From NCBI GenBank assembly GCA_003003615.1, contig PVWD01000037.1, forward strand, positions 1-32,738: DNA of 32,738 nt, given 5' to 3'. Positions 2,165 to 31,098 of this stretch are shown here, piece after piece. A program made the translations under genes and the position numbers. The stretch comes from a filamentous cyanobacterium CCP2 (GTDB taxonomy: Bacteria > Cyanobacteriota > Cyanobacteriia > Elainellales > Elainellaceae). Below the pieces are notes generated by a model, which worked only from the letters and a program-made list of their open reading frames with translations, had not been told where the DNA came from and did no database searches. The first letter of the stretch is position 1. Every line of letters begins with the position of its first letter.

Positions 2165-3547
2165 TCACGTTTCTCCTCCCCACTCCCCCTCTTGGGGAAT
2201 CCGCACCGTAAAGGTTGTGCCAACTCCGGGCTGACTCTTGATCGAAATTTCCCCATTGTGAAGATCCAGGCAGCGTTTCACCACCGCCAACCCCAACCCG
2301 GTTCCTGCAACCCCTTTGACATTACTCCCCCGCACAAACAAGTCATACACATGGGGCTGTTCCTCTGGAAGAATGCCGACTCCCTGGTCTTTGACCTGAA
2401 AGAAAACGGCATCAGGCTCACAGAAAAGGGCAAGGTGAACCGTGCTTTCGGGCGGTGAAAATTTGATGGCGTTGGAAAGTAAGTTGCTGAGGATAGCGTA
2501 TAGCAGTTTCTCGTCCACGTAGGCACGAACGCAGTCTCCCTGCTGGCTAAAGGTGAGCGATCGGCTGGCATCACCATACAGTTGAAAATCCTCAACTAGA
2601 TTCAGGCAAAAGGTTTGAATCTCAATCCATTCGGGTTTACATTCCAGTTTTCCAGCATCGGCTCTGGCCAAGGTTAAAATGTCGCTGAGAAGTTGAGTCA
2701 TCACCTTGGCAGAGGATTGAATCCGGTAGAGGTTTTTGAGTTTGGCGGGTTCCACCTGATGCTTCAGGGTTTCATCTAAAAGCTGAGCAGACCCTAAAAT
2801 CAGGCTGAGGGGTGTCCGAAATTCATGGGACACCATCGAAAACAGTTGCAGCTTTAATTCACTCAGCTCTTTTTCCTGGGCGAGAGTGCGCTGGCGCGTT
2901 TCAGCATACTGTCGTTTGACCATTTGCCGATAGAGTTGGGCATACACGCCAAATAAAATGGCGAAGGTCAGTAAAGTTCCTAATGGCTCAATTAGCATCC
3001 TCAAGCGTAAATTGGACTGGGCTTGCTCCACCTGCGATTGTAAAATTTGCTCTTCCTGGTCTTTGAGGATCGCCGTTAGCTGCTGAATGGCTTCCTGGTT
3101 TTGCTGGCTCTGGACAATTAAAGGATCGGTGATGGAAGGAATCGTTTGTCTACCCTGGTAAGCTTCGAGCGATCCCTCCAATAACTCCACTTGTTCAATT
3201 AATAATTGTTCTAGTGCGTCTAGTCGCTGTTGCTGAATGGGTGCATCTGCAAGGGGTTGTCTTAACTGCTTCAGGATTGGATCAAGTTCACGAATGGCGA
3301 CACGATATTGCTCAAGCCTCGTTCGATCGCCCGAAAGGACATATCCCCATCGGCGTGACTCAGCATCTGCTAAAGTAACAGACAAATTCGTGAGAACATT
3401 AAGAATTTCATTGGTTTGGCTCACCTGATTTGCGCTCTCTACTAACTGCGTCGCATTCTGATAAGAGGTAACGCTGACTGCACCCATTAACAAGACTGCC
3501 AGCCCAAACCCGCCCGTTATCCATTTTCCTTCGTGTAACCATTTCAT
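2165..3547 (-). CDS. CHASE3-type sensor histidine kinase
   Basis: Membrane sensor kinase of 460 residues from the ATG at 3547. The open frame extends to a TTG at 3589, but that would overlap the divergent regulator. Order: a short N-terminus, a membrane segment (about 10-29), a roughly 150-residue periplasmic CHASE3-like helical region with the typical ESRRWGYVLSGD sequence, a second membrane segment (about 190-210), a HisKA domain with H241 in SHEFRTP, and HATPase_c with NLLSNAIKF, DQGVGI and GTGLGLAV boxes. It should autophosphorylate H241 and pass the phosphate to the regulator encoded divergently beside it. The signal is unknown; CHASE3 domains sense extracytoplasmic cues. All catalytic boxes look intact. 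Confidence 0.9.
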   Translation of the reverse strand: MKWLHEGKWITGGFGLAVLLMGAVSVTSYQNATQLVESANQVSQTNEILNVLTNLSVTLADAESRRWGYVLSGDRTRLEQYRVAIRELDPILKQLRQPLADAPIQQQRLDALEQLLIEQVELLEGSLEAYQGRQTIPSITDPLIVQSQQNQEAIQQLTAILKDQEEQILQSQVEQAQSNLRLRMLIEPLGTLLTFAILFGVYAQLYRQMVKRQYAETRQRTLAQEKELSELKLQLFSMVSHEFRTPLSLILGSAQLLDETLKHQVEPAKLKNLYRIQSSAKVMTQLLSDILTLARADAGKLECKPEWIEIQTFCLNLVEDFQLYGDASRSLTFSQQGDCVRAYVDEKLLYAILSNLLSNAIKFSPPESTVHLALFCEPDAVFFQVKDQGVGILPEEQPHVYDLFVRGSNVKGVAGTGLGLAVVKRCLDLHNGEISIKSQPGVGTTFTVRIPQEGEWGGET

Positions 3548-3556
3548 ACTGACTCT

Positions 3557-4234
3557 ATGCGTATTCTGGTTGTTGAAGACGATGTCCAAATTGCTGATAT
3601 GCTGACGGAAGCCCTAACCAACCGTCAGTACAAAGTTGATGTGGCACAGGATGGAGAGGAAGCCTGGAGTTGGGCGGAAGCCTTGGAATATGACCTGATT
3701 TTGCTTGACATTACCTTACCTAGAATGAACGGACTCCGGTTTTGCCAACAGTTACGCGATCGGCATTCTGCTGTCCCCGTTTTGATGCTAACTGCCCGCG
3801 ATACGATCGCCGACAAAATCATCGGTTTGGATGCCGGGGCTGATGATTATATGGTGAAGCCCTTCGACATTGAAGAGCTGATGGCACGCATTCGGGCCCT
3901 GCTGCGGCGCGGAGGGTCTACGGTGCGGCCAAACCTACTGTGGGGAGATTTGGCCCTCAACCCCAACACCTATGAAGTCAATTATGCCAGCCAACCTCTG
4001 ACGCTGACCCCCAAAGAATATGCCTTATTAGAGCTACTCGTCACCAACGGCCGAAGGGTACTCAGCCGACCTGGCATCATTGAACGACTGTGGGCAGCAG
4101 ATGACCCACCCACCGAAGAGGCCGTTAAATCTCACATTAAAACGCTGCGGCAAAAGCTGCGATCGGCTGGGGCCCCCGAAGACTTTATTGAAACGGTTCA
4201 TGGGCTAGGATATCGCTTACAGCAGACCCAGTAG
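3557..4234 (+). CDS. OmpR/PhoB-family response regulator
   Basis: This 225-residue regulator has an N-terminal receiver domain (about 1-115) with acidic pair D8/D9, phosphoacceptor D51 in LLLDITLP, the T of MLTAR and the K of MVKPFD. A C-terminal winged helix (about 127-222) ends in the typical ETVHGLGYRL. It is almost certainly the partner of the kinase encoded on the opposite strand. The two ATG codons are nine bases apart, and no clear Shine-Dalgarno precedes this one, so each gene's promoter must lie inside the other's coding region or the transcripts are near leaderless. A terminator-like hairpin follows at 4400. Targets are unknown. Confidence 0.93.
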   Translation: MRILVVEDDVQIADMLTEALTNRQYKVDVAQDGEEAWSWAEALEYDLILLDITLPRMNGLRFCQQLRDRHSAVPVLMLTARDTIADKIIGLDAGADDYMVKPFDIEELMARIRALLRRGGSTVRPNLLWGDLALNPNTYEVNYASQPLTLTPKEYALLELLVTNGRRVLSRPGIIERLWAADDPPTEEAVKSHIKTLRQKLRSAGAPEDFIETVHGLGYRLQQTQ

Positions 4235-4433: not shown

Positions 4434-4759
4434 GGGACTTCTTCCCCCCCAAATCCTCCCGTTCTTGCCCAGGTTTTCCCACTTTGAATCAGTAACCTTA
4501 ACGAACTGGGTATTCAGTGGATGTGGCAAGCGAAAGGATGGCTATTCAAAGCTCTATATTTCGGGCTGATAGAGGTTGTTCTTTCCACTTGTCTTAACGG
4601 TTCTATAAATGCATTCACGAAACCTGTTGTCCCTTAAAATGGCAAGTAACTGAATGCCTGAAGTGCTGAGAACCGACAAATTTACCGGATTTGTCACAAA
4701 AATAGCTTGTCATTGGGATTTTCAGTTTGTTGCGTCAGGCGGAAGCCCTATCAATCTTT

Positions 4760-7438
4760 ATGCTAACCATTGGTGATCCTATCCCCTGGTTTACGCTGCC
4801 TTCAACCTCAAACCCGACCTACCACTTCGATACGCTGGGTGGCTATCGGACGGTTCTGTTTTTCTTTGGCAGCTCCAAAATCCCGAAAGTTGCTGATATT
4901 CTCAAAGACTTTTTGCAACGCCAAGACCAGTTTGAACGGCTGAATGTGCCTTTTTTTGGGGTCAGCATTGACCCGGAAGATGCAGAACTGAAAGCGGCGA
5001 TCGGCACTCCTACCTTTTTTAAGTTTTTGTGGGACTTTGAGCGGCAAGTCAGCCAGTCTTACGGAGTGTGTCAGGTTGACGGAGAGAATGCCTTCTACGC
5101 ACCAACCGTTTTCATTATTGATGAAAGTTTGCGGGTTTTGCATATTCTTCCGATAGAGAATGCAGAGTCATTTGCAGCCAAGGTGATGAACCTCCTGGAG
5201 GCCCTGCCAGCGCAAGAGCCTCACGTCATGGCATCGCGCCAAGCCCCAGTGCTGATGATTCCAAAAGTATTTGAGCCAGAATTTTGCCAGCAGTTGATTC
5301 GTCTTTATGAAACGAAAGGTGGTGAAGAGTCTGGGTTTATGCGCGAGGTGGATGGCAAAACCGTTGCTGTGATGGACTATGGCTTCAAGAAGCGGCGGGA
5401 TGTGCTGGTGGAAGATCCAACATTGCTAGAGGCAATCAACACATTTGTCCTCCGGCGGATTAAACCAGAAATTGAAAAGGCTTTTCAGTTTGAAATTACC
5501 CGCTTTGAACGGCATCTGATCGCCTGCTACGAGTCCCATAATCAGGGTTTTTTCAACCGTCACCGCGACAACACCACCAAGGGCACAGCCCACCGTCGCT
5601 TTGCCATGACCCTAAACCTCAATACGGGAGAATATGAGGGCGGCTGTTTGTGGTTTCCGGAGTATGGTCGGCAGTTGTATCGCCCCGGCGTAGGGGAAGC
5701 CGTTATTTTTTCTTGCTCCATGCTGCATGAAGTGACACCCGTTGTGGAAGGACGGCGGTACGCGCTGCTTTCCTTCTTTTATGGCGATGAGGATGCCCAA
5801 ATTCGAGAGCAAAACCGCAAATATCTGGCAGCAAAACAGGCTTCGGCGCGTCAAGTGGAGCCATCTACCGAGGAGGCTGAAGCGGTGCAGCGAAGGGATA
5901 CGTCATTAGGGACAACTGCTGTTGCGGTGGAAGAGGATAGTGCAGTGGAAGCGGAGCAACCCCAGGAAGCTATTCCCTCTCTAGTCGAGGAAACAGAGGT
6001 CGGAGAAGCCTCACAGGATACGCTGGACGCGATCGATGCAGACCAGGCAGATGCAGAAAAGCTTGAGGATGAACCAGCAGATGGGGACAAGATGAGTTCT
6101 GGTGAGCCTGATGAGCCTGAGTTGAAAAAATCTGCGGGCGATCGAGCGTCCGAAGGCAAGCGGGCTGGGCTGGGCTTTCAACCTAAATCAAAAACCAAGC
6201 AGGGGAAACGGGTCAAAAATCCTACCAAAATCCTGTTTTTGCATCCCAACTTTCCAGCCCAGTTTCGCCACATGGCAACCACCTTAGCGAACGATCCCAA
6301 TTATCAAATTGTCTATGGAACCACCCGCCAGGAAGGGGAAATTCCCGGTGTGAAAAAGGTGCTGTATGCCCCAAACCGAGAGGCTCACCCCGAAACCCAT
6401 CACTATGTTCGATCGCTGGAAAGTGCTGTGCTTCAGGGGCAAGCAGTGTACCGACTGATTCAGCAGCTTAAGGATGAAGGATTTGTGCCCAATGTGGTGT
6501 ATGGGCATTCGGGCTGGGGGCCAACGCTCTTTATCAAAGATGCTTTACCCAAAGCCAAGCTGCTCTGCTATTTTGAGTGGTTTTACCATGCTCACGGATC
6601 AGATAGCGATTTTGACCCCGCCAACCCCCTGACTGCCGACGATGAAGCCCGAATTCGGATTAAAAACTCGCCGATTTTGCTTGACCTTTACAGTTGTGAT
6701 CAGGGGCTGACCCCCACGCGCTGGCAACAGCAGCAATTTCCTTCAGAATTTCGATCGAAGCTTAAAGTGCTCCATGACGGAGTAGACACCGACTTTTTCC
6801 AGCCTAACCCCGGAGCCAAACTCGTTTTACCCGCTCTGGGAATTGATTTGTCTGAAGTGGATGAACTGGTGACGTATGTGGCGCGGGGCATGGAACCCTA
6901 CCGAGGGTTTCCCCAATTTATGCAGGCGGTGTCCCTGCTGCAAAAGCGTCGCCCTAACTGCCATGTGGTGATTGTTGGCGAAAACCGAGTTGCCTATGGA
7001 CGCGAACTGCCCGATGGCAAAACCTACAAGCAGGTCATGTTAGAACAGTTGCCCCTTGACCTGTCTCGGCTGCACTTCACAGGCTATTTAGCCTACACGG
7101 ACTATTTGAAGGTGTTGCAGGCTTCCTCTGTTCATGTTTACCTGACCTATCCCTTTGTGTTGTCCTGGTCAATGCTGGAGGCTATGTCTACAGGGTGCCT
7201 AGTCCTGGGTTCAAACACTGCGCCTGTCCTGGAAATGATTCAAGACGGTGAAAACGGCTTGCTCGTAGATTTCTTCAAGCCCGATCGCATTGTGGAGCGC
7301 ATGATTGAAATCCTGGATCACCCCGATCGGATGGCATCCCTACGACAAAAGGCGCGAGAAACCATCCTAGATTCCTATCGCCTAAGCAATCTGTTACCCC
7401 AACATTTAGAGTGGGTAAAAGAGTGGAGCCAGGCATAG
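4760..7438 (+). CDS. three-domain fusion: peroxiredoxin-like, 2OG-Fe(II) hydroxylase, GT4 glycosyltransferase
   Basis: An 892-residue protein from the ATG at 4760, chosen over an upstream TTG because MLTIGDPIPWF is a typical redoxin start. Residues about 1-150 are AhpC/TSA-like, but where the peroxidatic cysteine should be the sequence reads FFFGSSKIPKVADIL, with no cysteine, so peroxidase activity is unlikely. Residues about 160-355 are a prolyl-4-hydroxylase-like dioxygenase: iron ligands H268, D270 and H323, and a 2-oxoglutarate-binding arginine near 332-333. A low-complexity acidic linker (about 360-485) follows. Residues about 490-890 are a GT4-type glycosyltransferase with LHPNFPAQFRH, ARGMEPYRGF and SMLEAMSTG, and a second Glu in VLEMI. 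No signal peptide, so cytosolic. Hydroxylation followed by glycosylation of a target is an inference. Confidence 0.85.
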   Translation: MLTIGDPIPWFTLPSTSNPTYHFDTLGGYRTVLFFFGSSKIPKVADILKDFLQRQDQFERLNVPFFGVSIDPEDAELKAAIGTPTFFKFLWDFERQVSQSYGVCQVDGENAFYAPTVFIIDESLRVLHILPIENAESFAAKVMNLLEALPAQEPHVMASRQAPVLMIPKVFEPEFCQQLIRLYETKGGEESGFMREVDGKTVAVMDYGFKKRRDVLVEDPTLLEAINTFVLRRIKPEIEKAFQFEITRFERHLIACYESHNQGFFNRHRDNTTKGTAHRRFAMTLNLNTGEYEGGCLWFPEYGRQLYRPGVGEAVIFSCSMLHEVTPVVEGRRYALLSFFYGDEDAQIREQNRKYLAAKQASARQVEPSTEEAEAVQRRDTSLGTTAVAVEEDSAVEAEQPQEAIPSLVEETEVGEASQDTLDAIDADQADAEKLEDEPADGDKMSSGEPDEPELKKSAGDRASEGKRAGLGFQPKSKTKQGKRVKNPTKILFLHPNFPAQFRHMATTLANDPNYQIVYGTTRQEGEIPGVKKVLYAPNREAHPETHHYVRSLESAVLQGQAVYRLIQQLKDEGFVPNVVYGHSGWGPTLFIKDALPKAKLLCYFEWFYHAHGSDSDFDPANPLTADDEARIRIKNSPILLDLYSCDQGLTPTRWQQQQFPSEFRSKLKVLHDGVDTDFFQPNPGAKLVLPALGIDLSEVDELVTYVARGMEPYRGFPQFMQAVSLLQKRRPNCHVVIVGENRVAYGRELPDGKTYKQVMLEQLPLDLSRLHFTGYLAYTDYLKVLQASSVHVYLTYPFVLSWSMLEAMSTGCLVLGSNTAPVLEMIQDGENGLLVDFFKPDRIVERMIEILDHPDRMASLRQKARETILDSYRLSNLLPQHLEWVKEWSQA

Positions 7439-16525: not shown

Positions 16526-17638
16526 TTAAACTTGCACTTCGCGATCGAATCGTTCAATCCAGGCAGTACGATTTTTATTAATCTCATTCCAATCCAGCAG
16601 CACCAGTTTGTCCAATACTTTGGCTGAATTACTGCCCAGTTTTTCCTCCAGTATTCCTGTCAGGGCAACATTTCGATTAGACGGCACAAAGTAGTAAGGT
16701 TCAGCCGCCATTGCCGTTTGCACTTCCGTACTTAATGCAGCATTGATAAACGCCGCTGCTAATTCCAGATCGGCACTGGTATTTTTGACAATCTGCTGGG
16801 CGGGACGCAGGGCAATTCCGCCTTCCTGGGGCATCACCCAATCAATCTCTGCTCCCCTTGCCTTGAGTGCCATCACATTATTTAAGTCGTGGGGTGCAAT
16901 GACTACCTCCTCCTGCTGGAACAATGTTGCGAGTGCGCCTGCATTGGAAGCAATACCCGCCAAATTGGGTTTCAGTTCTTGGAGGGCAGCAAAGGCAGGT
17001 TCAATGTCGGTTTCGCTGCCGCCATTCATTTTGGCAATCTGCACCATTAAGGATGTTCCCTGAGTGGTTTGCATTCCCTGCATGGACACTCGCCCTCGGT
17101 ATTGGGAATCCCACAAATCTTCCCAGGAGGTGGGCGGTGTAGAAACGATCGTCGGGTTGTAGGCAATTCCCATGACCTGCACTCCGGTGGTGGGGCCCCA
17201 TCCGTCTGGGTTTTGCAATTCGGGCAGCACCTCGGCATAGTTGTCAACTAAATCGACGGGCAGCTTTTCAAACAGTTCATCTCTAGGTGCAGCATTAAAG
17301 GGGCCCTCATCGAGCAACGCCACATCAAAGGGAGGATTTTGAGCCGCCGCAGTCAGTTGTGCAACTTGCTCTAGTGACACCATTGGGGTTAGGTTCACCT
17401 CACCTCCAGTAACTTCCACAAAAGCAGGAACCAAGACATCGCGATAAAACTGTTCCCAACTTCCCGCAAAGCAAGCAGCGATTAAGCGACCACCGATCGC
17501 CCCTGCATCGGCAGAACCGTTTGCGCTAACGGAACTGGGATTACCACCACAGGCTTTGAGCAGCAAGCTCGTTCCGGTAAATAATCCGGCTCCCAATACG
17601 GCACGACGAGACACCCGGTTGAAGGATGGATAAGTCAT
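16526..17638 (-). CDS. ABC substrate-binding lipoprotein 1 (PotD-like, Tat signal)
   Basis: A 370-residue extracytoplasmic binding protein from the ATG at 17638. An ATG 34 codons upstream is in frame, but only the shorter start aligns with the two paralogues in the operon. It has a twin arginine (R11R12 in SRRAVLGAGLF), a hydrophobic stretch, and a lipobox ending in C30 (LKAC), so it is probably exported folded by Tat and lipid-anchored. The mature part resembles PotD/PotF-type polyanion or polyamine binders, with TPPTSWEDLWDSQYRGR in the hinge region and ERFDREVQV at the end. The ligand is unknown. It is one of three binding proteins serving one permease pair. Confidence 0.88.
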   Translation of the reverse strand: MTYPSFNRVSRRAVLGAGLFTGTSLLLKACGGNPSSVSANGSADAGAIGGRLIAACFAGSWEQFYRDVLVPAFVEVTGGEVNLTPMVSLEQVAQLTAAAQNPPFDVALLDEGPFNAAPRDELFEKLPVDLVDNYAEVLPELQNPDGWGPTTGVQVMGIAYNPTIVSTPPTSWEDLWDSQYRGRVSMQGMQTTQGTSLMVQIAKMNGGSETDIEPAFAALQELKPNLAGIASNAGALATLFQQEEVVIAPHDLNNVMALKARGAEIDWVMPQEGGIALRPAQQIVKNTSADLELAAAFINAALSTEVQTAMAAEPYYFVPSNRNVALTGILEEKLGSNSAKVLDKLVLLDWNEINKNRTAWIERFDREVQV

Positions 17639-17736
17639 AGAATCACACTTTGTAACGTCTAAACCTGAATACTGAAACTCAGTTGCACTAGTCTTCACAT
17701 CTGTCCTGCAATCAATTGTGGACGAATGGCTCGAAC

Positions 17737-17850
17737 CCATTGACGGAGGTTAAGAATTTAATTCAGTAATTTCGATTGGCAATCATCCCACTGGAGGCAA
17801 GATGCCTGCGCTACGGATTATCCGATTAAATTCTTAACTTCCATTAATGG
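17737..17850. repeat. 114-bp MITE-like element with 26-bp imperfect inverted ends
   Basis: The left arm 17737-17762 and the reverse complement of the right arm 17825-17850 match at 23 of 26 positions; the inner 14 bases (GTTAAGAATTTAAT) match exactly. The 62-base middle contains GGCAAGATGCCTGCG, a core shared with the repeat at 21107. It sits between binding proteins 2 and 1, in a 294-base gap with no gene. As RNA it would fold into one long hairpin and could stabilise or separate the flanking messages. Confidence 0.6.
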
Positions 17851-17932: not shown

Positions 17933-19075
17933 TTAAACTTGAACAATTCGATCGAACTGCTCAACCCACTCTGTCCGGTTTTGATTAATGGTTGCCCAAT
18001 CTAGAAGTTCCAATTTCGTCAAAATTGCGTCCAAATCATCGCCTAGTTTTTGGGCAATTTCGGCTGGAATGGGCACATTTTTGTTCGTTGGTAAAACATA
18101 GTTCGTTTCCACCATTTGAGTTTGTACATCCTGACTCAAAGCAGCATCAATGTAGGCTGCGGCTAGCTCCACACTGGCTGTCGGATTTTTGACAATGCTC
18201 ATTATCGGAGTCAGGGCAAATCCTCCTTCCTGGGGCAACACCCAATCAATGTCTACGCCCTTTTCCTGAAGCAGGCGAACACTGTTTAAGTCATGAGGCG
18301 CGATCACCACTTCTCCTTGCTCAAATAAGGTAATCAACGCCCCTGAATTTGCCACCACTCCTGCCAGGTTTGGAACCAGTTCTTCCAGTGCTGCAAATGC
18401 TGGATCAAGATTATCTGCGCTGCCACCGTTCATCTTGGCAATCTGCTGCATAAAACCGATCGTGTGATTGTTCCGCATTGCCATCAACGCCACACGACCT
18501 TTGTATGCATCATTCCATAAATCTGCCCAGGAAGTGGGCGGAGTCGTGACGACCGTTGGATTATAGGCAATTCCCACTGCCTGCACTCCAATGAGGGGTC
18601 CCCAAGTATCAGTACTCTTAAATTGATCGGCAAGGTCATTATAATTTTGGAGCAGATCAACAGGTAGTTTCTGAAATAATTCTTCCTTCGGCACACCCTC
18701 AAATACGCCAGAATCCAGCGATACAACATCAAAAGGGGGACTGTTTGGCGATGCCTGGAGTTTGGCAATTTGATCTGCAGAAACAGCCGTGACCAGGGAA
18801 GCTTCTGCCCCGGTTTCTGCCGCAAACTTAGGAACGAGGGTATTCCGGTTGAACTGTTCCCATGATCCGGGCAAAGTTGTTGAAATCAGCGTTCCACCTG
18901 CCAGGGAATTGGTTGCAGAATCGGCGGCAGCATCACCAGCAGAATTCTCTGTATCAGGATTGGTTGCCGTATTGGAACCGTTCGCGCATCCCTTCAACGC
19001 CAAGCTTGCGCCCGTAAATAATGTTGCCCCCAACATCGCACGGCGAGTCATCCGAAACCGTTTATGATTTGACAT
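17933..19075 (-). CDS. ABC substrate-binding lipoprotein 2 (PotD-like, Tat signal)
   Basis: A 380-residue paralogue of binding protein 1. The signal reads MTRRAMLGATLFTG with twin arginines R11R12 and a lipobox ending in C30 (LKGC), followed by a Ser/Asn/Ala-rich tether to about residue 55. Shared landmarks are FDVVSLDSGVFEGVPKEELFQKLPVDLL, TTPPTSWADLW and a terminal VEQFDRIVQV. AAGGAC is nine bases before the ATG. Tandem placement with binding protein 1 suggests a local duplication. The two copies have diverged in the middle, which may give different ligand preferences. Ligand not identifiable. Confidence 0.88.
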   Translation of the reverse strand: MSNHKRFRMTRRAMLGATLFTGASLALKGCANGSNTATNPDTENSAGDAAADSATNSLAGGTLISTTLPGSWEQFNRNTLVPKFAAETGAEASLVTAVSADQIAKLQASPNSPPFDVVSLDSGVFEGVPKEELFQKLPVDLLQNYNDLADQFKSTDTWGPLIGVQAVGIAYNPTVVTTPPTSWADLWNDAYKGRVALMAMRNNHTIGFMQQIAKMNGGSADNLDPAFAALEELVPNLAGVVANSGALITLFEQGEVVIAPHDLNSVRLLQEKGVDIDWVLPQEGGFALTPIMSIVKNPTASVELAAAYIDAALSQDVQTQMVETNYVLPTNKNVPIPAEIAQKLGDDLDAILTKLELLDWATINQNRTEWVEQFDRIVQV

Positions 19076-21165: not shown

Positions 21166-22293
21166 CTACACCTGAATTTCTCGGTTGAACTGCTCAATCC
21201 AAGCCGATCGCTGCTGGTTAATTGTTGCCCAGTCTAATGTATTAGCTTTTGCCATAAAATCAGCAATGCTGGAAACCCCCATGATCTCTTCAAACTCAGC
21301 AGGAAACTCGGCTGCACTGTTGGCAGGAATATAAAAATATGGATCACCCACCACAGCAGATTGGGCTGCTTTCCCCAGCATGGTATCTACGTAGGCAACG
21401 GCGCGATCGATCCCTGCCACAGGCTGACTTACCACATTCAGGCTATACCGGGCGGCGATAATGCCAGATTCCGGCAAACCCATTTCAATGGGGAGTCCCC
21501 GTGCCTTCAAGTTCATCACATCGTTGTGCCACATGGGAGCAATATCAATTTCGCCCTGCTGGAACAAAGTCAGTAATGCACCAGGGTTTGCTGCAACCCC
21601 ATTCACATTCGACAAAATTTCCCGTAGTGCTACAAAAGCGGGTTCAATCTCTGATTCGCTACCGCCTCTCAGCTTTGCCAACTCCACCATAAACGAAGTC
21701 CCCAACACGCTGTTCATGCTGACTAGCCCAATCCGTCCTCCCAGGTTCGGATCAAACAAAGCATCCCAAGAGGTGGGTGGTGTGGTGATGCGCTCTGGGT
21801 TATAGCCAAGGACAGCCCCCTGAGCATAGAAGATAGGAGCCAAACCCTGGGAGTCAATGAATGAAGGCTCAACATCTGCGAGATTCTGGCTCTTGTCGGC
21901 AGGAAAAGCCTGAATGAGTCCTTCCCTGAGGGCAATGTCGTTCTGTCCGTCGTCTAAAATCACCACATCAAAGGGGGGATTGTCTGGAGAAGCCTTGAGC
22001 CGTGCTACTTGTTCAAATGCCAACAAGGGAATTGCGCTAACCTTAATCCCCGTTTCCTGATCTACGATCGCTGCTAGTTTTTCCCGATAGAGGCTGTCGG
22101 TCGTTCCTGGAAACGAGGCGACGACTAGTTCCCCGGCGGTAGCACCTCCTTCAGGACTGGATTCACCACCATCGGCAGTGGCATCTCCATTGGGTGCAGA
22201 AGCGCAGCTTTTCAGTGCCCAACTCGTTCCCAGAAATAGCCCTGTACCCAGAACAGCGCGACGGGTAATGCGTTGTGTTGATCGACTCATCAT
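21166..22293 (-). CDS. ABC substrate-binding lipoprotein 3 (PotD-like, Tat signal)
   Basis: A 375-residue member of the same family as binding proteins 1 and 2, and the first gene of the operon. Twin arginines R11R12 (TRRAVLGTGLF) and a lipobox ending in C30 (LKSC) occupy the same positions as in the other two. It keeps the FDVVILDDGQ and TTPPTSWDALFDP landmarks and ends IEQFNREIQV. The middle differs more from 1 and 2 than they do from each other by eye. ATG at 22293 has GGGGAG about eleven bases before it. Operator-like palindromes lie about 170 bases upstream, so the GntR regulator probably controls it. Ligand unknown. Confidence 0.88.
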   Translation of the reverse strand: MMSRSTQRITRRAVLGTGLFLGTSWALKSCASAPNGDATADGGESSPEGGATAGELVVASFPGTTDSLYREKLAAIVDQETGIKVSAIPLLAFEQVARLKASPDNPPFDVVILDDGQNDIALREGLIQAFPADKSQNLADVEPSFIDSQGLAPIFYAQGAVLGYNPERITTPPTSWDALFDPNLGGRIGLVSMNSVLGTSFMVELAKLRGGSESEIEPAFVALREILSNVNGVAANPGALLTLFQQGEIDIAPMWHNDVMNLKARGLPIEMGLPESGIIAARYSLNVVSQPVAGIDRAVAYVDTMLGKAAQSAVVGDPYFYIPANSAAEFPAEFEEIMGVSSIADFMAKANTLDWATINQQRSAWIEQFNREIQV

Positions 22294-27371: not shown

Positions 27372-28454
27372 ATGGAAGCGGCAACTGCATATTCAGTTTG
27401 GGATTTGTTGGGGGGAGCGTTTCAGCTTGATGCCGAGGCGTACCAGCAAATTAGCATTGCTCCCGGCGGGATAAGGCTGGCCTTATTGGTGGTATTGGTG
27501 GCTGGCTTGTCGATCGCTGTTGCCCAAAGCATCATTCTTTTTATTAATCAAGTTAGACCGGCCCGCTTTATTTTTAGCCTGCTCCTAAACATGGTGCTGT
27601 TTGCGGCAGGTTTTATTTTTCTCGTGTTCAGCACCTGGCTCATTACCCTTCTGCCCTGGACGGTGCAGGTTTCTTTTCCCAAATTAATTGCCGTGTTGGG
27701 GCTGAGCTACGCCCCGATTTTGTTTGGCTTTTTGGGGGGTCTGCCCTACTTGGGGTCGCCTCTGCTCTCGGTGCTGTCGGTTTGGCACTTACTGGCAATG
27801 GTCGTCGGGTTTGGAGCCGTCACAGGGACAGATCTAGGACACGCTTTCGGCTATGTTGCTGTTGGCTGGCTCGTTTTACAACTGTTGCAGCAAACCATTG
27901 GTCGGCCGATCGCCAATTTAGGCAAATGGCTGGCAAATACGGTGGCAGGGGTGGAGCTAATCACCCATCGACGAGACGTGGTAGACGTGATTTACAGCCG
28001 AGCAGAAGAGTCGGCAACCCATTGGCAAGAAGAATTTCGGCGACGAATTGAGGAAGTGCGCCAAGGAGATTTAGTCGGTGCTTTGACGGGAGGAGAAGGA
28101 CTCATTCCAGGAACCCATCAGTCTATGGCGAGTTCTGGGGAAAGAGAAGTGGGCGAATCGACCTTTTCCTCTGGAGGCTCTTCTGCTCCTGAGGACTCCA
28201 CCCGTCGGACTTCCGTGCATCGTCCCACCCTCGACAATGACACCCTGAGAACCATCCTGGGACTCGTCGGTATTGCCCTGCTCACCTTTTTGGTAGTCAT
28301 TTCCCTTAGACCCGTTCGAGATGCCTGGTTTGGTTGGTATGCCACGTTGCCAAGGGTGCTGCGGTTTGTGTTTAATCTAGGCTGGATTGGAGTCATTGCT
28401 CTTGTTGTGGCGGGGCTGCTGGCTCCCCTGGAAACGCTGGGCTGGTGGGTATGA
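27372..28454 (+). CDS. Yip1-like multi-spanning membrane protein
   Basis: A 360-residue inner-membrane protein. Five hydrophobic helices between about residues 30 and 180 (for example LALLVVLVAGLSIAVAQSIILFI and LSYAPILFGFLGGLPYLGSP) match the Yip1 domain pattern. A cytoplasmic segment of about 110 residues follows, containing HRRDVVDVIYSRAEESATHWQEEFRRRIEEV and a Ser/Gly/Glu-rich linker, and then two more helices (about 292-315 and 332-355). AAGG lies before the ATG. The next gene begins about eight bases after its stop, so the two likely form an operon and may act together at the membrane. No enzymatic motif is visible. Function is unknown. Confidence 0.75.
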   Translation: MEAATAYSVWDLLGGAFQLDAEAYQQISIAPGGIRLALLVVLVAGLSIAVAQSIILFINQVRPARFIFSLLLNMVLFAAGFIFLVFSTWLITLLPWTVQVSFPKLIAVLGLSYAPILFGFLGGLPYLGSPLLSVLSVWHLLAMVVGFGAVTGTDLGHAFGYVAVGWLVLQLLQQTIGRPIANLGKWLANTVAGVELITHRRDVVDVIYSRAEESATHWQEEFRRRIEEVRQGDLVGALTGGEGLIPGTHQSMASSGEREVGESTFSSGGSSAPEDSTRRTSVHRPTLDNDTLRTILGLVGIALLTFLVVISLRPVRDAWFGWYATLPRVLRFVFNLGWIGVIALVVAGLLAPLETLGWWV

Positions 28455-28461
28455 CGATGAA

Positions 28462-31098
28462 GTGGATACGACGGTTAATGCTGGAGAATTAGCGCAGCCG
28501 ATCGCCAATCCAGAGGAAATTTCGCGCTATATCGTGTATTTGGATGGGATTAGCAAATCCACGTTTGAATATCTGCCTGATATTGAAGATTTTCTCAACG
28601 GGTTAACGCCGACCTTACCCGAAGATGTGGCCCTGGTGCGGGGAATTATGCCCTACTCGGTGATTAATAACCCCCTGGATGAAGACCGTCCCCTAGCGTT
28701 TTTGTGGAAACTGGCCGATCGCAATCGATATGACAACCCCGCTGACTTACTCGGCTTACTGGTCAACCTGCGTAACGTGATTATTGTGGGCGTGTCTGCC
28801 GATCGCCGGTATGGGCCACTCTACAACCAGGGCATTGCTCAGGTCGTGTTTAATGGACTCGTCAAAAATGGTTATCAACTGGGCAGCGGCATTCCGGTAA
28901 CGCTGATTGGCTACAGTGGCGGTGGGCAGATGGCCTGTGCCTGTGCTCCGTTCCTCAAAAAAGCATTGCGGGCCCCGATCGATGTTATTTCGTTGGGCGG
29001 AGTCATTAGTGCGAACTGCAACATTCTGGCTCTGGAACACCTTTATCACCTGTCTGGAAAGAAGGACTCCGTGGAACGGCTTGGAGCCATCATGTTTCCT
29101 GGACGCTGGAAGTGGCTGCCGTTGTCTTTCTGGAACCGGGCCAAGCGACGCGGAAAAATTTCCTTTTTTGACATGGGAGATATTGGCCATCAGGTTCCAG
29201 GCGGCATTCTTGACCCCAAGCTCATCCTGCCCGATGGACGCAGTTCCCTTCAGCAAACCATCGACACCATTAACGGCATCCTGCGGGAAGAAATTCTGCC
29301 AGAAGAAGACCTGACTTCCGTTAAGCTAAGCAACTACGAGCATTACATTCAATCTGCTGCCTTTAACCGACCCGACTATTACCCAATTCAACAATCCTTA
29401 CCGTCCGAGTGGTATCGACCGATCGGCAGTTGGATGGGCCGATTAATTTTGCCCAAACCAGAGGAACGCAAAACCATTCGGGGAGTCTTGTTTGAGGTGT
29501 ATCACGCCGACGCAGCCTATCAGCATTTAGTCGGGAAAATTGTGCCTTTACGCTGGAGCCAAGACCCGATCGTCCAAAAGCTGGTCAGAGCCGTCAAGCA
29601 GGACATTCACTTTAGCGCGGAGGCTTCCTACACCAGCAAACACGGCGGTATGGTGCATCCCGATCGGCTAAATCACTGGTTGCAAGTTGGGCCGTTAGAA
29701 TCCCTTGCCGGGGCACGCCCAGAAGATGACATGGTGGTGATGCTGAATGAACCCGTTGCAGTGGAGGAAGGGGGCTTGCGGATTGGCAGCCAGCCCGTAC
29801 AAATTACCGGCCGCTTCTATGCCTTGGTGCAGTTTATCAAACCGATCGCCAACACGGATCAGTTTCAGGTGGTTCACTTTAACCGGGACTCTCGCCAGTT
29901 TGATGGGCTTAAAGAAGTGATGCGGCTTCCTCCTGTCGTTTTTTCAGAAGACTATGGCAGCGCGCTTTCCACGACTCGCGATCTGGAAAAATCGCCGTTG
30001 AATGAAACGGGCTGGTACGTTTACGGAGCGCAAGATGGCAGTGGAATGTTTGTGGTGCAGTCTTTGGCTCCCCGGGCCCTGTTTCGGTTGCAGCCGGATG
30101 AGGTGGTGTTTGGCAAAAAAGCTGCTTACCATTACATTCGCAAACGAGCCTGGGCCGAGGCAAAAGCTCAAAAAGGACGAATTTCTTCAGTTTTATGTAC
30201 GTGCCGATCGGATGAATCTTCTTCGGCCATTCAAGCTGCCATTGACGAGTGGCAAGAGGGCGATCGAGCGTTGGTGGTTCATACCTATGGCGGTATTGGC
30301 GGAAACCACAAAGAGCCTGCTGCGGCAACCCCCATTTTCTTTGGGCATTTTGCCTTTGGGTTGGCGATCGTGATTTGGGAACCGCTATCGAATGAGTTGC
30401 GCTTTGATATTCGCTATGAGCAAGTCTACACCCACAATACGGATGGCATTATTGCCGGAACCCTGCATTGGTCGCGCTATATGGGCGATCGGCAGTTTGG
30501 CTGGCTGGGAACTCGTCCTGTTTGCGATCTAATTATTAAACACGATGCATTTACCAAGGACTATGACTTCAACGGTGCCCAGCGATCGGCTCTTTTCTAT
30601 ATGCTGATGCAGCTTCAGGTGATGACGGCTCGATATCGCACCGGCGATGGCACTGGCGGAACCTACGTTGGCCCGGCTAATAACTGTGCCCAAGATTCCA
30701 ACCAGGCCCTCTTTGCCAGCCTGAAATATATGGAAAATCAGGTTCAGCAAAATGTAGACACCTTACGGCAATGGCAGGCAGAACACCCAGAACAAGGAGA
30801 ACGATTTAACCAACTCTTGCAACTAGGACGAGAACTCCGTCAGCAATTGCAACCCCTCAGCGGAGACTATTCTGCCTGGGAACGGGGCGAATTCAATTTA
30901 GGCAGCAGCCTGGAAGACCAACCCCTCCGCAATTTAATTACCGGACTGGGCAGTTGGCGCACCATGCTTCCCCGCTATGCCAGCGATACAGTTGTAAAAA
31001 TTTTCCTCAACTACGAGGCTACCGTCTGGGTGTTGCGAACTAACCAAGTTGGCGGACACGATCCAGATATTGAACCGATCGTGCCAATGACGCTCTAA
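28462..31098 (+). CDS. large two-part protein: alpha/beta-hydrolase-like plus conserved NCxQD region
   Basis: An 878-residue protein if it starts at the GTG at 28462. The open frame extends upstream to a TTG inside the Yip1-like gene, which is less likely. The N-terminal part (about 20-280) resembles an alpha/beta-hydrolase, with nucleophile elbow GYSGGGQ (S152). The middle holds long poorly recognised segments with LNEPVAVEEGGLRIGSQPVQITGRFYA. The C-terminal part has VHTYGGIGGNH (H607), GHFAFGLAIVI, YTHNTDGIIAGTLHW, ARYRTGDGTGG and GPANNCAQDSNQAL (C742). I recall this C-terminal pattern in cyanobacterial CPBP (CAAX protease-like) proteins. Whether Cys742 and a His form a catalytic pair is inference. 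Eight bases after the Yip1-like gene. Confidence 0.7.
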   Translation: MDTTVNAGELAQPIANPEEISRYIVYLDGISKSTFEYLPDIEDFLNGLTPTLPEDVALVRGIMPYSVINNPLDEDRPLAFLWKLADRNRYDNPADLLGLLVNLRNVIIVGVSADRRYGPLYNQGIAQVVFNGLVKNGYQLGSGIPVTLIGYSGGGQMACACAPFLKKALRAPIDVISLGGVISANCNILALEHLYHLSGKKDSVERLGAIMFPGRWKWLPLSFWNRAKRRGKISFFDMGDIGHQVPGGILDPKLILPDGRSSLQQTIDTINGILREEILPEEDLTSVKLSNYEHYIQSAAFNRPDYYPIQQSLPSEWYRPIGSWMGRLILPKPEERKTIRGVLFEVYHADAAYQHLVGKIVPLRWSQDPIVQKLVRAVKQDIHFSAEASYTSKHGGMVHPDRLNHWLQVGPLESLAGARPEDDMVVMLNEPVAVEEGGLRIGSQPVQITGRFYALVQFIKPIANTDQFQVVHFNRDSRQFDGLKEVMRLPPVVFSEDYGSALSTTRDLEKSPLNETGWYVYGAQDGSGMFVVQSLAPRALFRLQPDEVVFGKKAAYHYIRKRAWAEAKAQKGRISSVLCTCRSDESSSAIQAAIDEWQEGDRALVVHTYGGIGGNHKEPAAATPIFFGHFAFGLAIVIWEPLSNELRFDIRYEQVYTHNTDGIIAGTLHWSRYMGDRQFGWLGTRPVCDLIIKHDAFTKDYDFNGAQRSALFYMLMQLQVMTARYRTGDGTGGTYVGPANNCAQDSNQALFASLKYMENQVQQNVDTLRQWQAEHPEQGERFNQLLQLGRELRQQLQPLSGDYSAWERGEFNLGSSLEDQPLRNLITGLGSWRTMLPRYASDTVVKIFLNYEATVWVLRTNQVGGHDPDIEPIVPMTL

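What the first reader, a model, noticed from the sequence alone, without database searches (positions are those of the whole stretch)
4760..7438. Cysteine-less peroxiredoxin, prolyl hydroxylase and glycosyltransferase in one protein
The protein joins a redoxin fold that has lost the peroxidatic Cys, a 2OG-Fe(II) dioxygenase with a complete HxD...H site plus Arg, and a GT4 glycosyltransferase. Hydroxylation followed by glycosylation of the same residue is known from eukaryotic Skp1 and plant hydroxyproline glycosylation, where separate enzymes do it. A single bacterial polypeptide could do both to a protein or peptide substrate, with the dead redoxin domain acting as a recognition or oxygen/redox-sensing module.
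Basis: partly seen in the sequence, partly recalled or inferred. Interest (0 to 1): 0.65.

Follow-up and report, generated by a model that had tools for sequence, protein, structure and literature searches.

The report
Fused hydroxylase and RTX-linked sugar transferase
A cyanobacterium makes one protein that joins an oxygen-using hydroxylase to a sugar-adding enzyme whose separate relatives sit beside genes for exported calcium-binding surface proteins, so the two parts may modify the same exported protein, much as one animal and giant-virus enzyme does on collagen.

Summary
The ORF at 4760-7438(+) is real: 892 aa with a redoxin fold, a PKHD-type 2OG-Fe(II) oxygenase (H268, D270, H323, R333 invariant in 33/33 relatives), a ~125-aa acidic linker and a GT4-type glycosyltransferase. 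The lost peroxidatic Cys is a trait of the whole redoxin-oxygenase (RO) family, not of the fusion. RO and GT are usually separate genes. They are fused in the window and in one relative, and adjacent in another, where an A9 run puts them one frame apart. Stand-alone ROs end in GFQPKxxKKR; the same motif lies just before the GT in the fusions, so the fusion looks like stop-codon loss between neighbouring genes. A tree test rejects one RO clade for the fusions: at least two joins, or one with several losses. Stand-alone relatives of the GT are repeatedly beside RTX (calcium-binding) protein genes and type I exporters in cyanobacteria and Proteobacteria; in Nostocales and some other filamentous cyanobacteria the GT is fused to a PpiC prolyl isomerase. 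Most likely the fusion hydroxylates and glycosylates an exported, probably RTX-type, protein. The same-residue hydroxyproline idea is possible but untested. Collagen LH3 and mimivirus L230 are overlooked precedents.

The parts
4760..7438 (+). Fused ORF, 892 aa: redoxin-like + 2OG-Fe(II) oxygenase + linker + GT4 glycosyltransferase (an in-frame TTG at 4727 is a possible earlier start; the ATG matches relatives)
4760..5209 (+). Redoxin (thioredoxin-fold, AhpC/TSA-like) domain, residues 1-150; Val44 (4889-4891) at the peroxidatic-Cys position
5237..5830 (+). PKHD-type 2OG-Fe(II) oxygenase domain, residues 160-357
5561..5758 (+). Iron/2OG-binding residues H268 (5561), D270 (5567), H323 (5726), R333 (5756)
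   Evidence: invariant in 33/33 relatives
5840..6220 (+). Low-complexity linker, residues 361-487: acidic, then basic
6173..6187 (+). GFQPK motif (residues 472-476): former C-terminus of a stand-alone RO, a fusion scar
6221..7435 (+). GT4-type glycosyltransferase domain (GT-B fold), residues 488-892; F799 (7154) replaces the first Glu of EX7E, E807 (7178) is the second
2165..4234 (.). Flanking CHASE3 histidine kinase (2165-3589, -) and OmpR-type response regulator (3557-4234, +); same order beside an unfused RO in relative G016. Neighbourhood only, regulation not shown

Best explanation
A stand-alone redoxin-like/2OG-oxygenase (RO) gene acquired, directly downstream, a copy of an RTX/type-I-secretion-linked GT4 glycosyltransferase, and loss of the RO stop codon fused them. 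The product is proposed to be a cytoplasmic two-step modifying enzyme. The 2OG-Fe(II) domain hydroxylates side chains of a protein substrate, with the catalytically dead redoxin fold helping to bind it. The GT, on a flexible linker, adds a sugar to the same protein before type I export, the likely substrates being glycine/aspartate-rich RTX surface proteins. Shown: the architecture, intact oxygenase residues, the fusion scar, recurrence of the join, and the GT family's linkage to RTX and export genes. Inferred: catalytic activity, a shared substrate and its RTX identity. Not shown: which residue is hydroxylated, and whether the sugar goes on that hydroxyl.
For: Domains and catalytic residues. 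Fold models: RO pLDDT 91.7, pTM 0.84, hits PKHD 3dkq, PHD2 and BCP/Prx; GT pLDDT 89, pTM 0.86, GT-B, hits PglA, MshA, HepE. Recurrent fusion: G028, G011; AU test rejects one fused-RO clade, p 2.5e-5, or p 0.0035 with the unfused sister G023b included. Scar: stand-alone ROs of the same clade end GFQPK..KKR, and the GT part starts at the stand-alone GT's own N-terminus. GT context: an RTX gene within two genes of 25/26 long (GT-PpiC) and 6/54 short cyanobacterial forms, against 5/389 distant ORFs; 4/12 in the window's own family; 7/14 regions from other, mostly small-genome, lineages of the phylum; RTX and/or type I exporter genes near the GT in 8 of 11 proteobacterial plasmid regions examined. 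PpiC (Rotamase) fusion. The RTX proteins oscillin and SwmA are reported as glycosylated (PMC3034196). The window genome has about 30 contigs with RTX repeats.
Against: The fused gene is not itself beside an RTX gene. Many genomes have RO without GT, or GT without RO, so neither needs the other. The RTX link is weak in short-form GTs (6/54), and the fused copy is a short-form GT. Some GT relatives lie among polysaccharide genes, so the sugar may go onto a glycan. Neighbours of stand-alone ROs (two-component genes, Cupin_8, unrelated genes) do not point to glycosylation. No activity data exist.
Confidence: 0.5

Rival explanations
1. Same-residue coupling: the oxygenase makes hydroxyproline (or another hydroxylated residue) and the GT glycosylates that very hydroxyl, as LH3/L230 do on lysine.
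For: Recurrent fusion. The 2OG fold is nearest to PKHD 3dkq and to PHD2; 3dkq is also the structural neighbour reported for the L230 hydroxylase domain (PMC5802723). The same GT family is also fused to a PpiC prolyl isomerase.
Against: RO without GT and GT without RO are both common. The 2OG fold does not set the residue. No hydroxylase gene was recognised in the RTX-GT operons examined.
Confidence: 0.2
2. Two separate jobs on one chain: the RO part keeps its unknown ancestral role and the GT merely rides on the same polypeptide, by chance read-through of neighbouring genes.
For: The fusion retains both parental termini and a long disordered linker. The locus is syntenic with an unfused RO in G016. 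G023 has the sister RO without the GT.
Against: The join recurs in the tree, the linker frame stays open in two genomes, and catalytic residues of the oxygenase stay intact.
Confidence: 0.25
3. The GT builds exopolysaccharide or another glycan rather than protein-linked sugar, and the oxygenase modifies a glycan-pathway or small-molecule target.
For: GT4 neighbours by fold include HepE, MshA and PglA. Several proteobacterial relatives sit among polysaccharide genes.
Against: Repeated RTX and type I exporter linkage in two phyla and fusion to a protein foldase.
Confidence: 0.2
4. Assembly or sequencing artefact joining two genes.
For: G011, with an A9 run between the parts, shows how a one-base change joins or splits them. 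Reads could not be mapped here.
Against: G028 has the same architecture in another assembly, and the linker has coding-frame structure.
Confidence: 0.04

Closest known systems
Collagen lysyl hydroxylase LH3 (PLOD3) and mimivirus L230
   Same: One polypeptide carries a 2OG-Fe(II) hydroxylase and a glycosyltransferase acting on the same protein (PMC5802723, PMC9546862)
   Different: From general knowledge, their GT parts have the GT-A fold; here GT-B/GT4. L230 has the hydroxylase at the C terminus, here it precedes the GT. Here a redoxin-like domain is added and collagen or lysine is not implied
PKHD-type hydroxylases (3dkq Sbal_3634, PiuC, YbiX)
   Same: Same 2OG-Fe(II) domain type by sequence and fold
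   Different: No redoxin or GT domain; about 20% identity; physiological substrates not established here
Glyco_trans_4_3 (PF12000) glycosyltransferases of RTX/type I secretion loci
   Same: Same family, up to 74% identity over the GT part
   Different: Usually stand-alone, or fused to PpiC, not to an oxygenase
Skp1 / plant hydroxyproline glycosylation (general knowledge)
   Same: Hydroxylation followed by glycosylation of a protein
   Different: Separate enzymes, eukaryotic; hydroxyproline not shown here

Membership tests
Peroxiredoxin (AhpC/TSA) | Thioredoxin-like fold | tested here: met
   Pfam 1.2e-14; Foldseek hits to BCP and 1-Cys Prx
Peroxiredoxin (AhpC/TSA) | Peroxidatic cysteine | tested here: not met
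   Val44 in the window; Cys in 3/33 relatives
2OG-Fe(II) oxygenase, PKHD type | HxD...H iron ligands and 2OG-binding Arg | tested here: met
   H268, D270, H323, R333 invariant 33/33
2OG-Fe(II) oxygenase, PKHD type | Sequence and fold match to PKHD structures | tested here: met
   phmmer 3dkq 6e-6; Foldseek rank 1, 2.4e-11
Prolyl hydroxylase | Proline as substrate | not testable with these tools
   PHD2 is a fold neighbour only
GT4 glycosyltransferase | GT-B fold and Pfam GT4 models above cut-off | tested here: met
GT4 glycosyltransferase | Complete EX7E motif | tested here: not met
   First Glu is F799 (24/24 relatives have F there); E807 kept. A subfamily trait, so activity is not excluded
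LH3/L230-type bifunctional hydroxylase-glycosyltransferase | Hydroxylase and GT in one chain | tested here: met
LH3/L230-type bifunctional hydroxylase-glycosyltransferase | Homologous (GT-A, DxD-type) GT domain | tested here: not met
   GT-B fold, PF12000; analogous, not a member
LH3/L230-type bifunctional hydroxylase-glycosyltransferase | Sugar added to the residue hydroxylated by the same protein | not testable with these tools
   Needs biochemistry

The most novel reading that the evidence does not exclude
A bacterial single-polypeptide enzyme, evolved at least twice, independently of LH3/L230 and from different GT stock, that hydroxylates residues in exported RTX proteins and caps those hydroxyls with sugar before type I secretion.
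Probability: 0.17. Interest if true: 0.82.

Novelty: new variant of a known kind. Interest (0 to 1): 0.55.

Why it matters
Cyanobacterial RTX proteins such as oscillin and SwmA are described as glycosylated, and oscillin's glycosylated surface has been proposed to aid gliding, but I found no paper in the held library naming the glycosyltransferase. The RTX/exporter-linked GT family found here, present across cyanobacteria and in Proteobacteria, is a concrete candidate. The fused protein adds a testable hint that hydroxylation is part of the same pathway. If so, hydroxylation plus glycosylation in one protein arose separately in bacteria.

Tried and rejected
Equal-length 903-aa and 474-aa ORF pairs in the window: coincidence, the proteins are unrelated. 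Dead redoxin as a special trait of the fusion: rejected, family-wide. Fusion in all relatives: rejected; 3 joined cases, all in the window's own family, among the genomes sampled at order, class and phylum level. A single RO clade of fusions: rejected by AU test. The GT tree could not say whether the three fused GTs share one origin. A Pfam tally of short-GT neighbours found no recurrent oxygenase among the families shown. RO neighbours outside the family gave no consistent clue. Alignment A2 for a full-length model was misaligned and not folded, so domain packing is not modelled. Paper searches for this architecture found nothing relevant.

Full report
What is there. The ORF at 4760-7438(+) encodes 892 aa without interruption. 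Pfam finds AhpC-TSA, 2OG-FeII_Oxy_3, Glyco_trans_4_3 and Glycos_transf_1. A second gene in the same genome (C135) encodes only the redoxin plus oxygenase part, 54% identical. I call that unit RO.

Catalytic state. In 33 ROs, H268, D270, H323 and R333 are invariant, so the oxygenase looks active. The residue at the peroxidatic position is V44, and Cys appears there in 3 of 33, so loss of the peroxidase Cys is general in the family and not tied to the fusion. In the GT, the first Glu of EX7E is Phe in all 24 aligned relatives and the second Glu is kept. AlphaFold models are confident (RO pLDDT 91.7, GT 89.0). The RO model matches PKHD 3dkq, HIF prolyl hydroxylase PHD2 and BCP/1-Cys peroxiredoxins. 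The GT model matches GT-B enzymes PglA, MshA and HepE.

The fusion is real and recurrent. Across the family, RO and GT are usually separate ~400-aa proteins. G028 has the same fused architecture in an 863-aa ORF. In G011 the RO ends in ...GFQPKSKKKR and the GT follows at once in the -1 frame behind an A9 run, with no ATG, GTG or TTG upstream of its conserved start. That could be a broken fusion, a slippage-bridged fusion or a sequencing error. Stand-alone ROs of this clade end in GFQPKxxKKR or a close variant. The window protein carries GFQPK internally at residues 472-476, just before the GT begins at ILFLHPNFPAQF. Both parental ends are therefore preserved, as expected from stop loss between adjacent genes. 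The window locus is syntenic with G016, where kinase, regulator and RO lie in the same order and the RO is unfused.

How many origins. In the RO tree the window's RO pairs with unfused G029, while G028 and G011 group with unfused G023b. Forcing the three fused ROs into one clade is rejected (p 2.5e-5), also with G023b added (p 0.0035). The GT tree is unresolved for this. So there were at least two joins, or one join with several losses. In samples of 388 and 386 genomes at class and phylum level no further joined case was listed, though the match lists are limited.

What the GT does. Neighbours are the strongest clue. Of 80 cyanobacterial GT loci, the ~690-aa form carries a PpiC (Rotamase) domain C-terminally (one example tested), and 25 of 26 such loci have an RTX gene within two genes; ORFs four or more genes away are RTX in 5 of 389. 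Short forms have it in 6 of 54. In the window's own family, 4 of 12 stand-alone GT loci have RTX genes within two genes, and 7 of 14 regions from other lineages of the phylum do (looser RTX threshold). ABC exporters lie close by in 8 of 22 long-form loci; two of them were tested and carry weak Peptidase_C39 and cNMP-binding matches. On proteobacterial plasmids, relatives at roughly 33-49% identity lie beside type I exporter and calcium-binding genes in Shinella, a Pseudomonas plasmid, Qipengyuania, Sulfitobacter, Phyllobacterium and S. meliloti pSymB, and more loosely in Phaeobacter and Azospirillum; three further regions lack this. The regions were picked by hand from a list, so these counts are illustrative, not a rate. 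Cyanobacterial RTX proteins oscillin and SwmA are reported as glycosylated (PMC3034196). I infer an RTX/secretion-linked glycosyltransferase family, most likely acting on protein, with a glycan role as the main alternative.

What the RO does is less clear. Its neighbours vary: two-component genes, and in four genomes a Cupin_8/JmjC-type oxygenase, including the fused G028 locus. It occurs in 58 of 388 class genomes and on two proteobacterial plasmids.

Mechanism and confidence. The best-supported reading is a two-activity modifying enzyme for an exported protein (0.5). Same-residue coupling is possible (0.2). A fortuitous fusion with two separate roles is a serious rival (0.25). The listed explanations overlap and do not sum to one.

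Comparison. The present protein works like them in layout but is not a member, since its GT is of a different fold class. It is a new variant of a known kind.

Noticed in passing
L016:1480-1560 (G011:C286): RO and GT separated by one frame at an A9 run, with no usual start codon upstream of the GT's conserved N-terminus: possible -1 frameshift or transcriptional slippage fusion.
   Followed up: partly
L021, L022, L024-L028, C-termini: Stand-alone ROs share a conserved basic C-terminal tail GFQPKxxKKR after a variable low-complexity stretch; its function is unknown.
   Followed up: partly
L041:7998-10049 and similar loci, mostly Nostocales: The same GT fused to a PpiC-type prolyl isomerase, flanked by RTX genes on both sides.
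   Followed up: yes
L041:15525-16391, L067:9387-10253: A 288-aa protein with an FLEDDL motif and no Pfam match, recurrent downstream of the GT; possibly a second glycosyltransferase.
   Followed up: no
L163:2940-3911, L144, L159, L164: A Cupin_8/JmjC-like 2OG oxygenase gene beside RO in four genomes, one of them a fused RO-GT locus.
   Followed up: partly
window 16526-17740, 17933-19075, 21166-22293 (-): Three paralogous ABC substrate-binding proteins, which look polyamine-type, in one cluster with ABC ATPase and permease genes.
   Followed up: no
window 28387-31098 (+): A 903-aa ORF with no Pfam or NCBIfam match.
   Followed up: no
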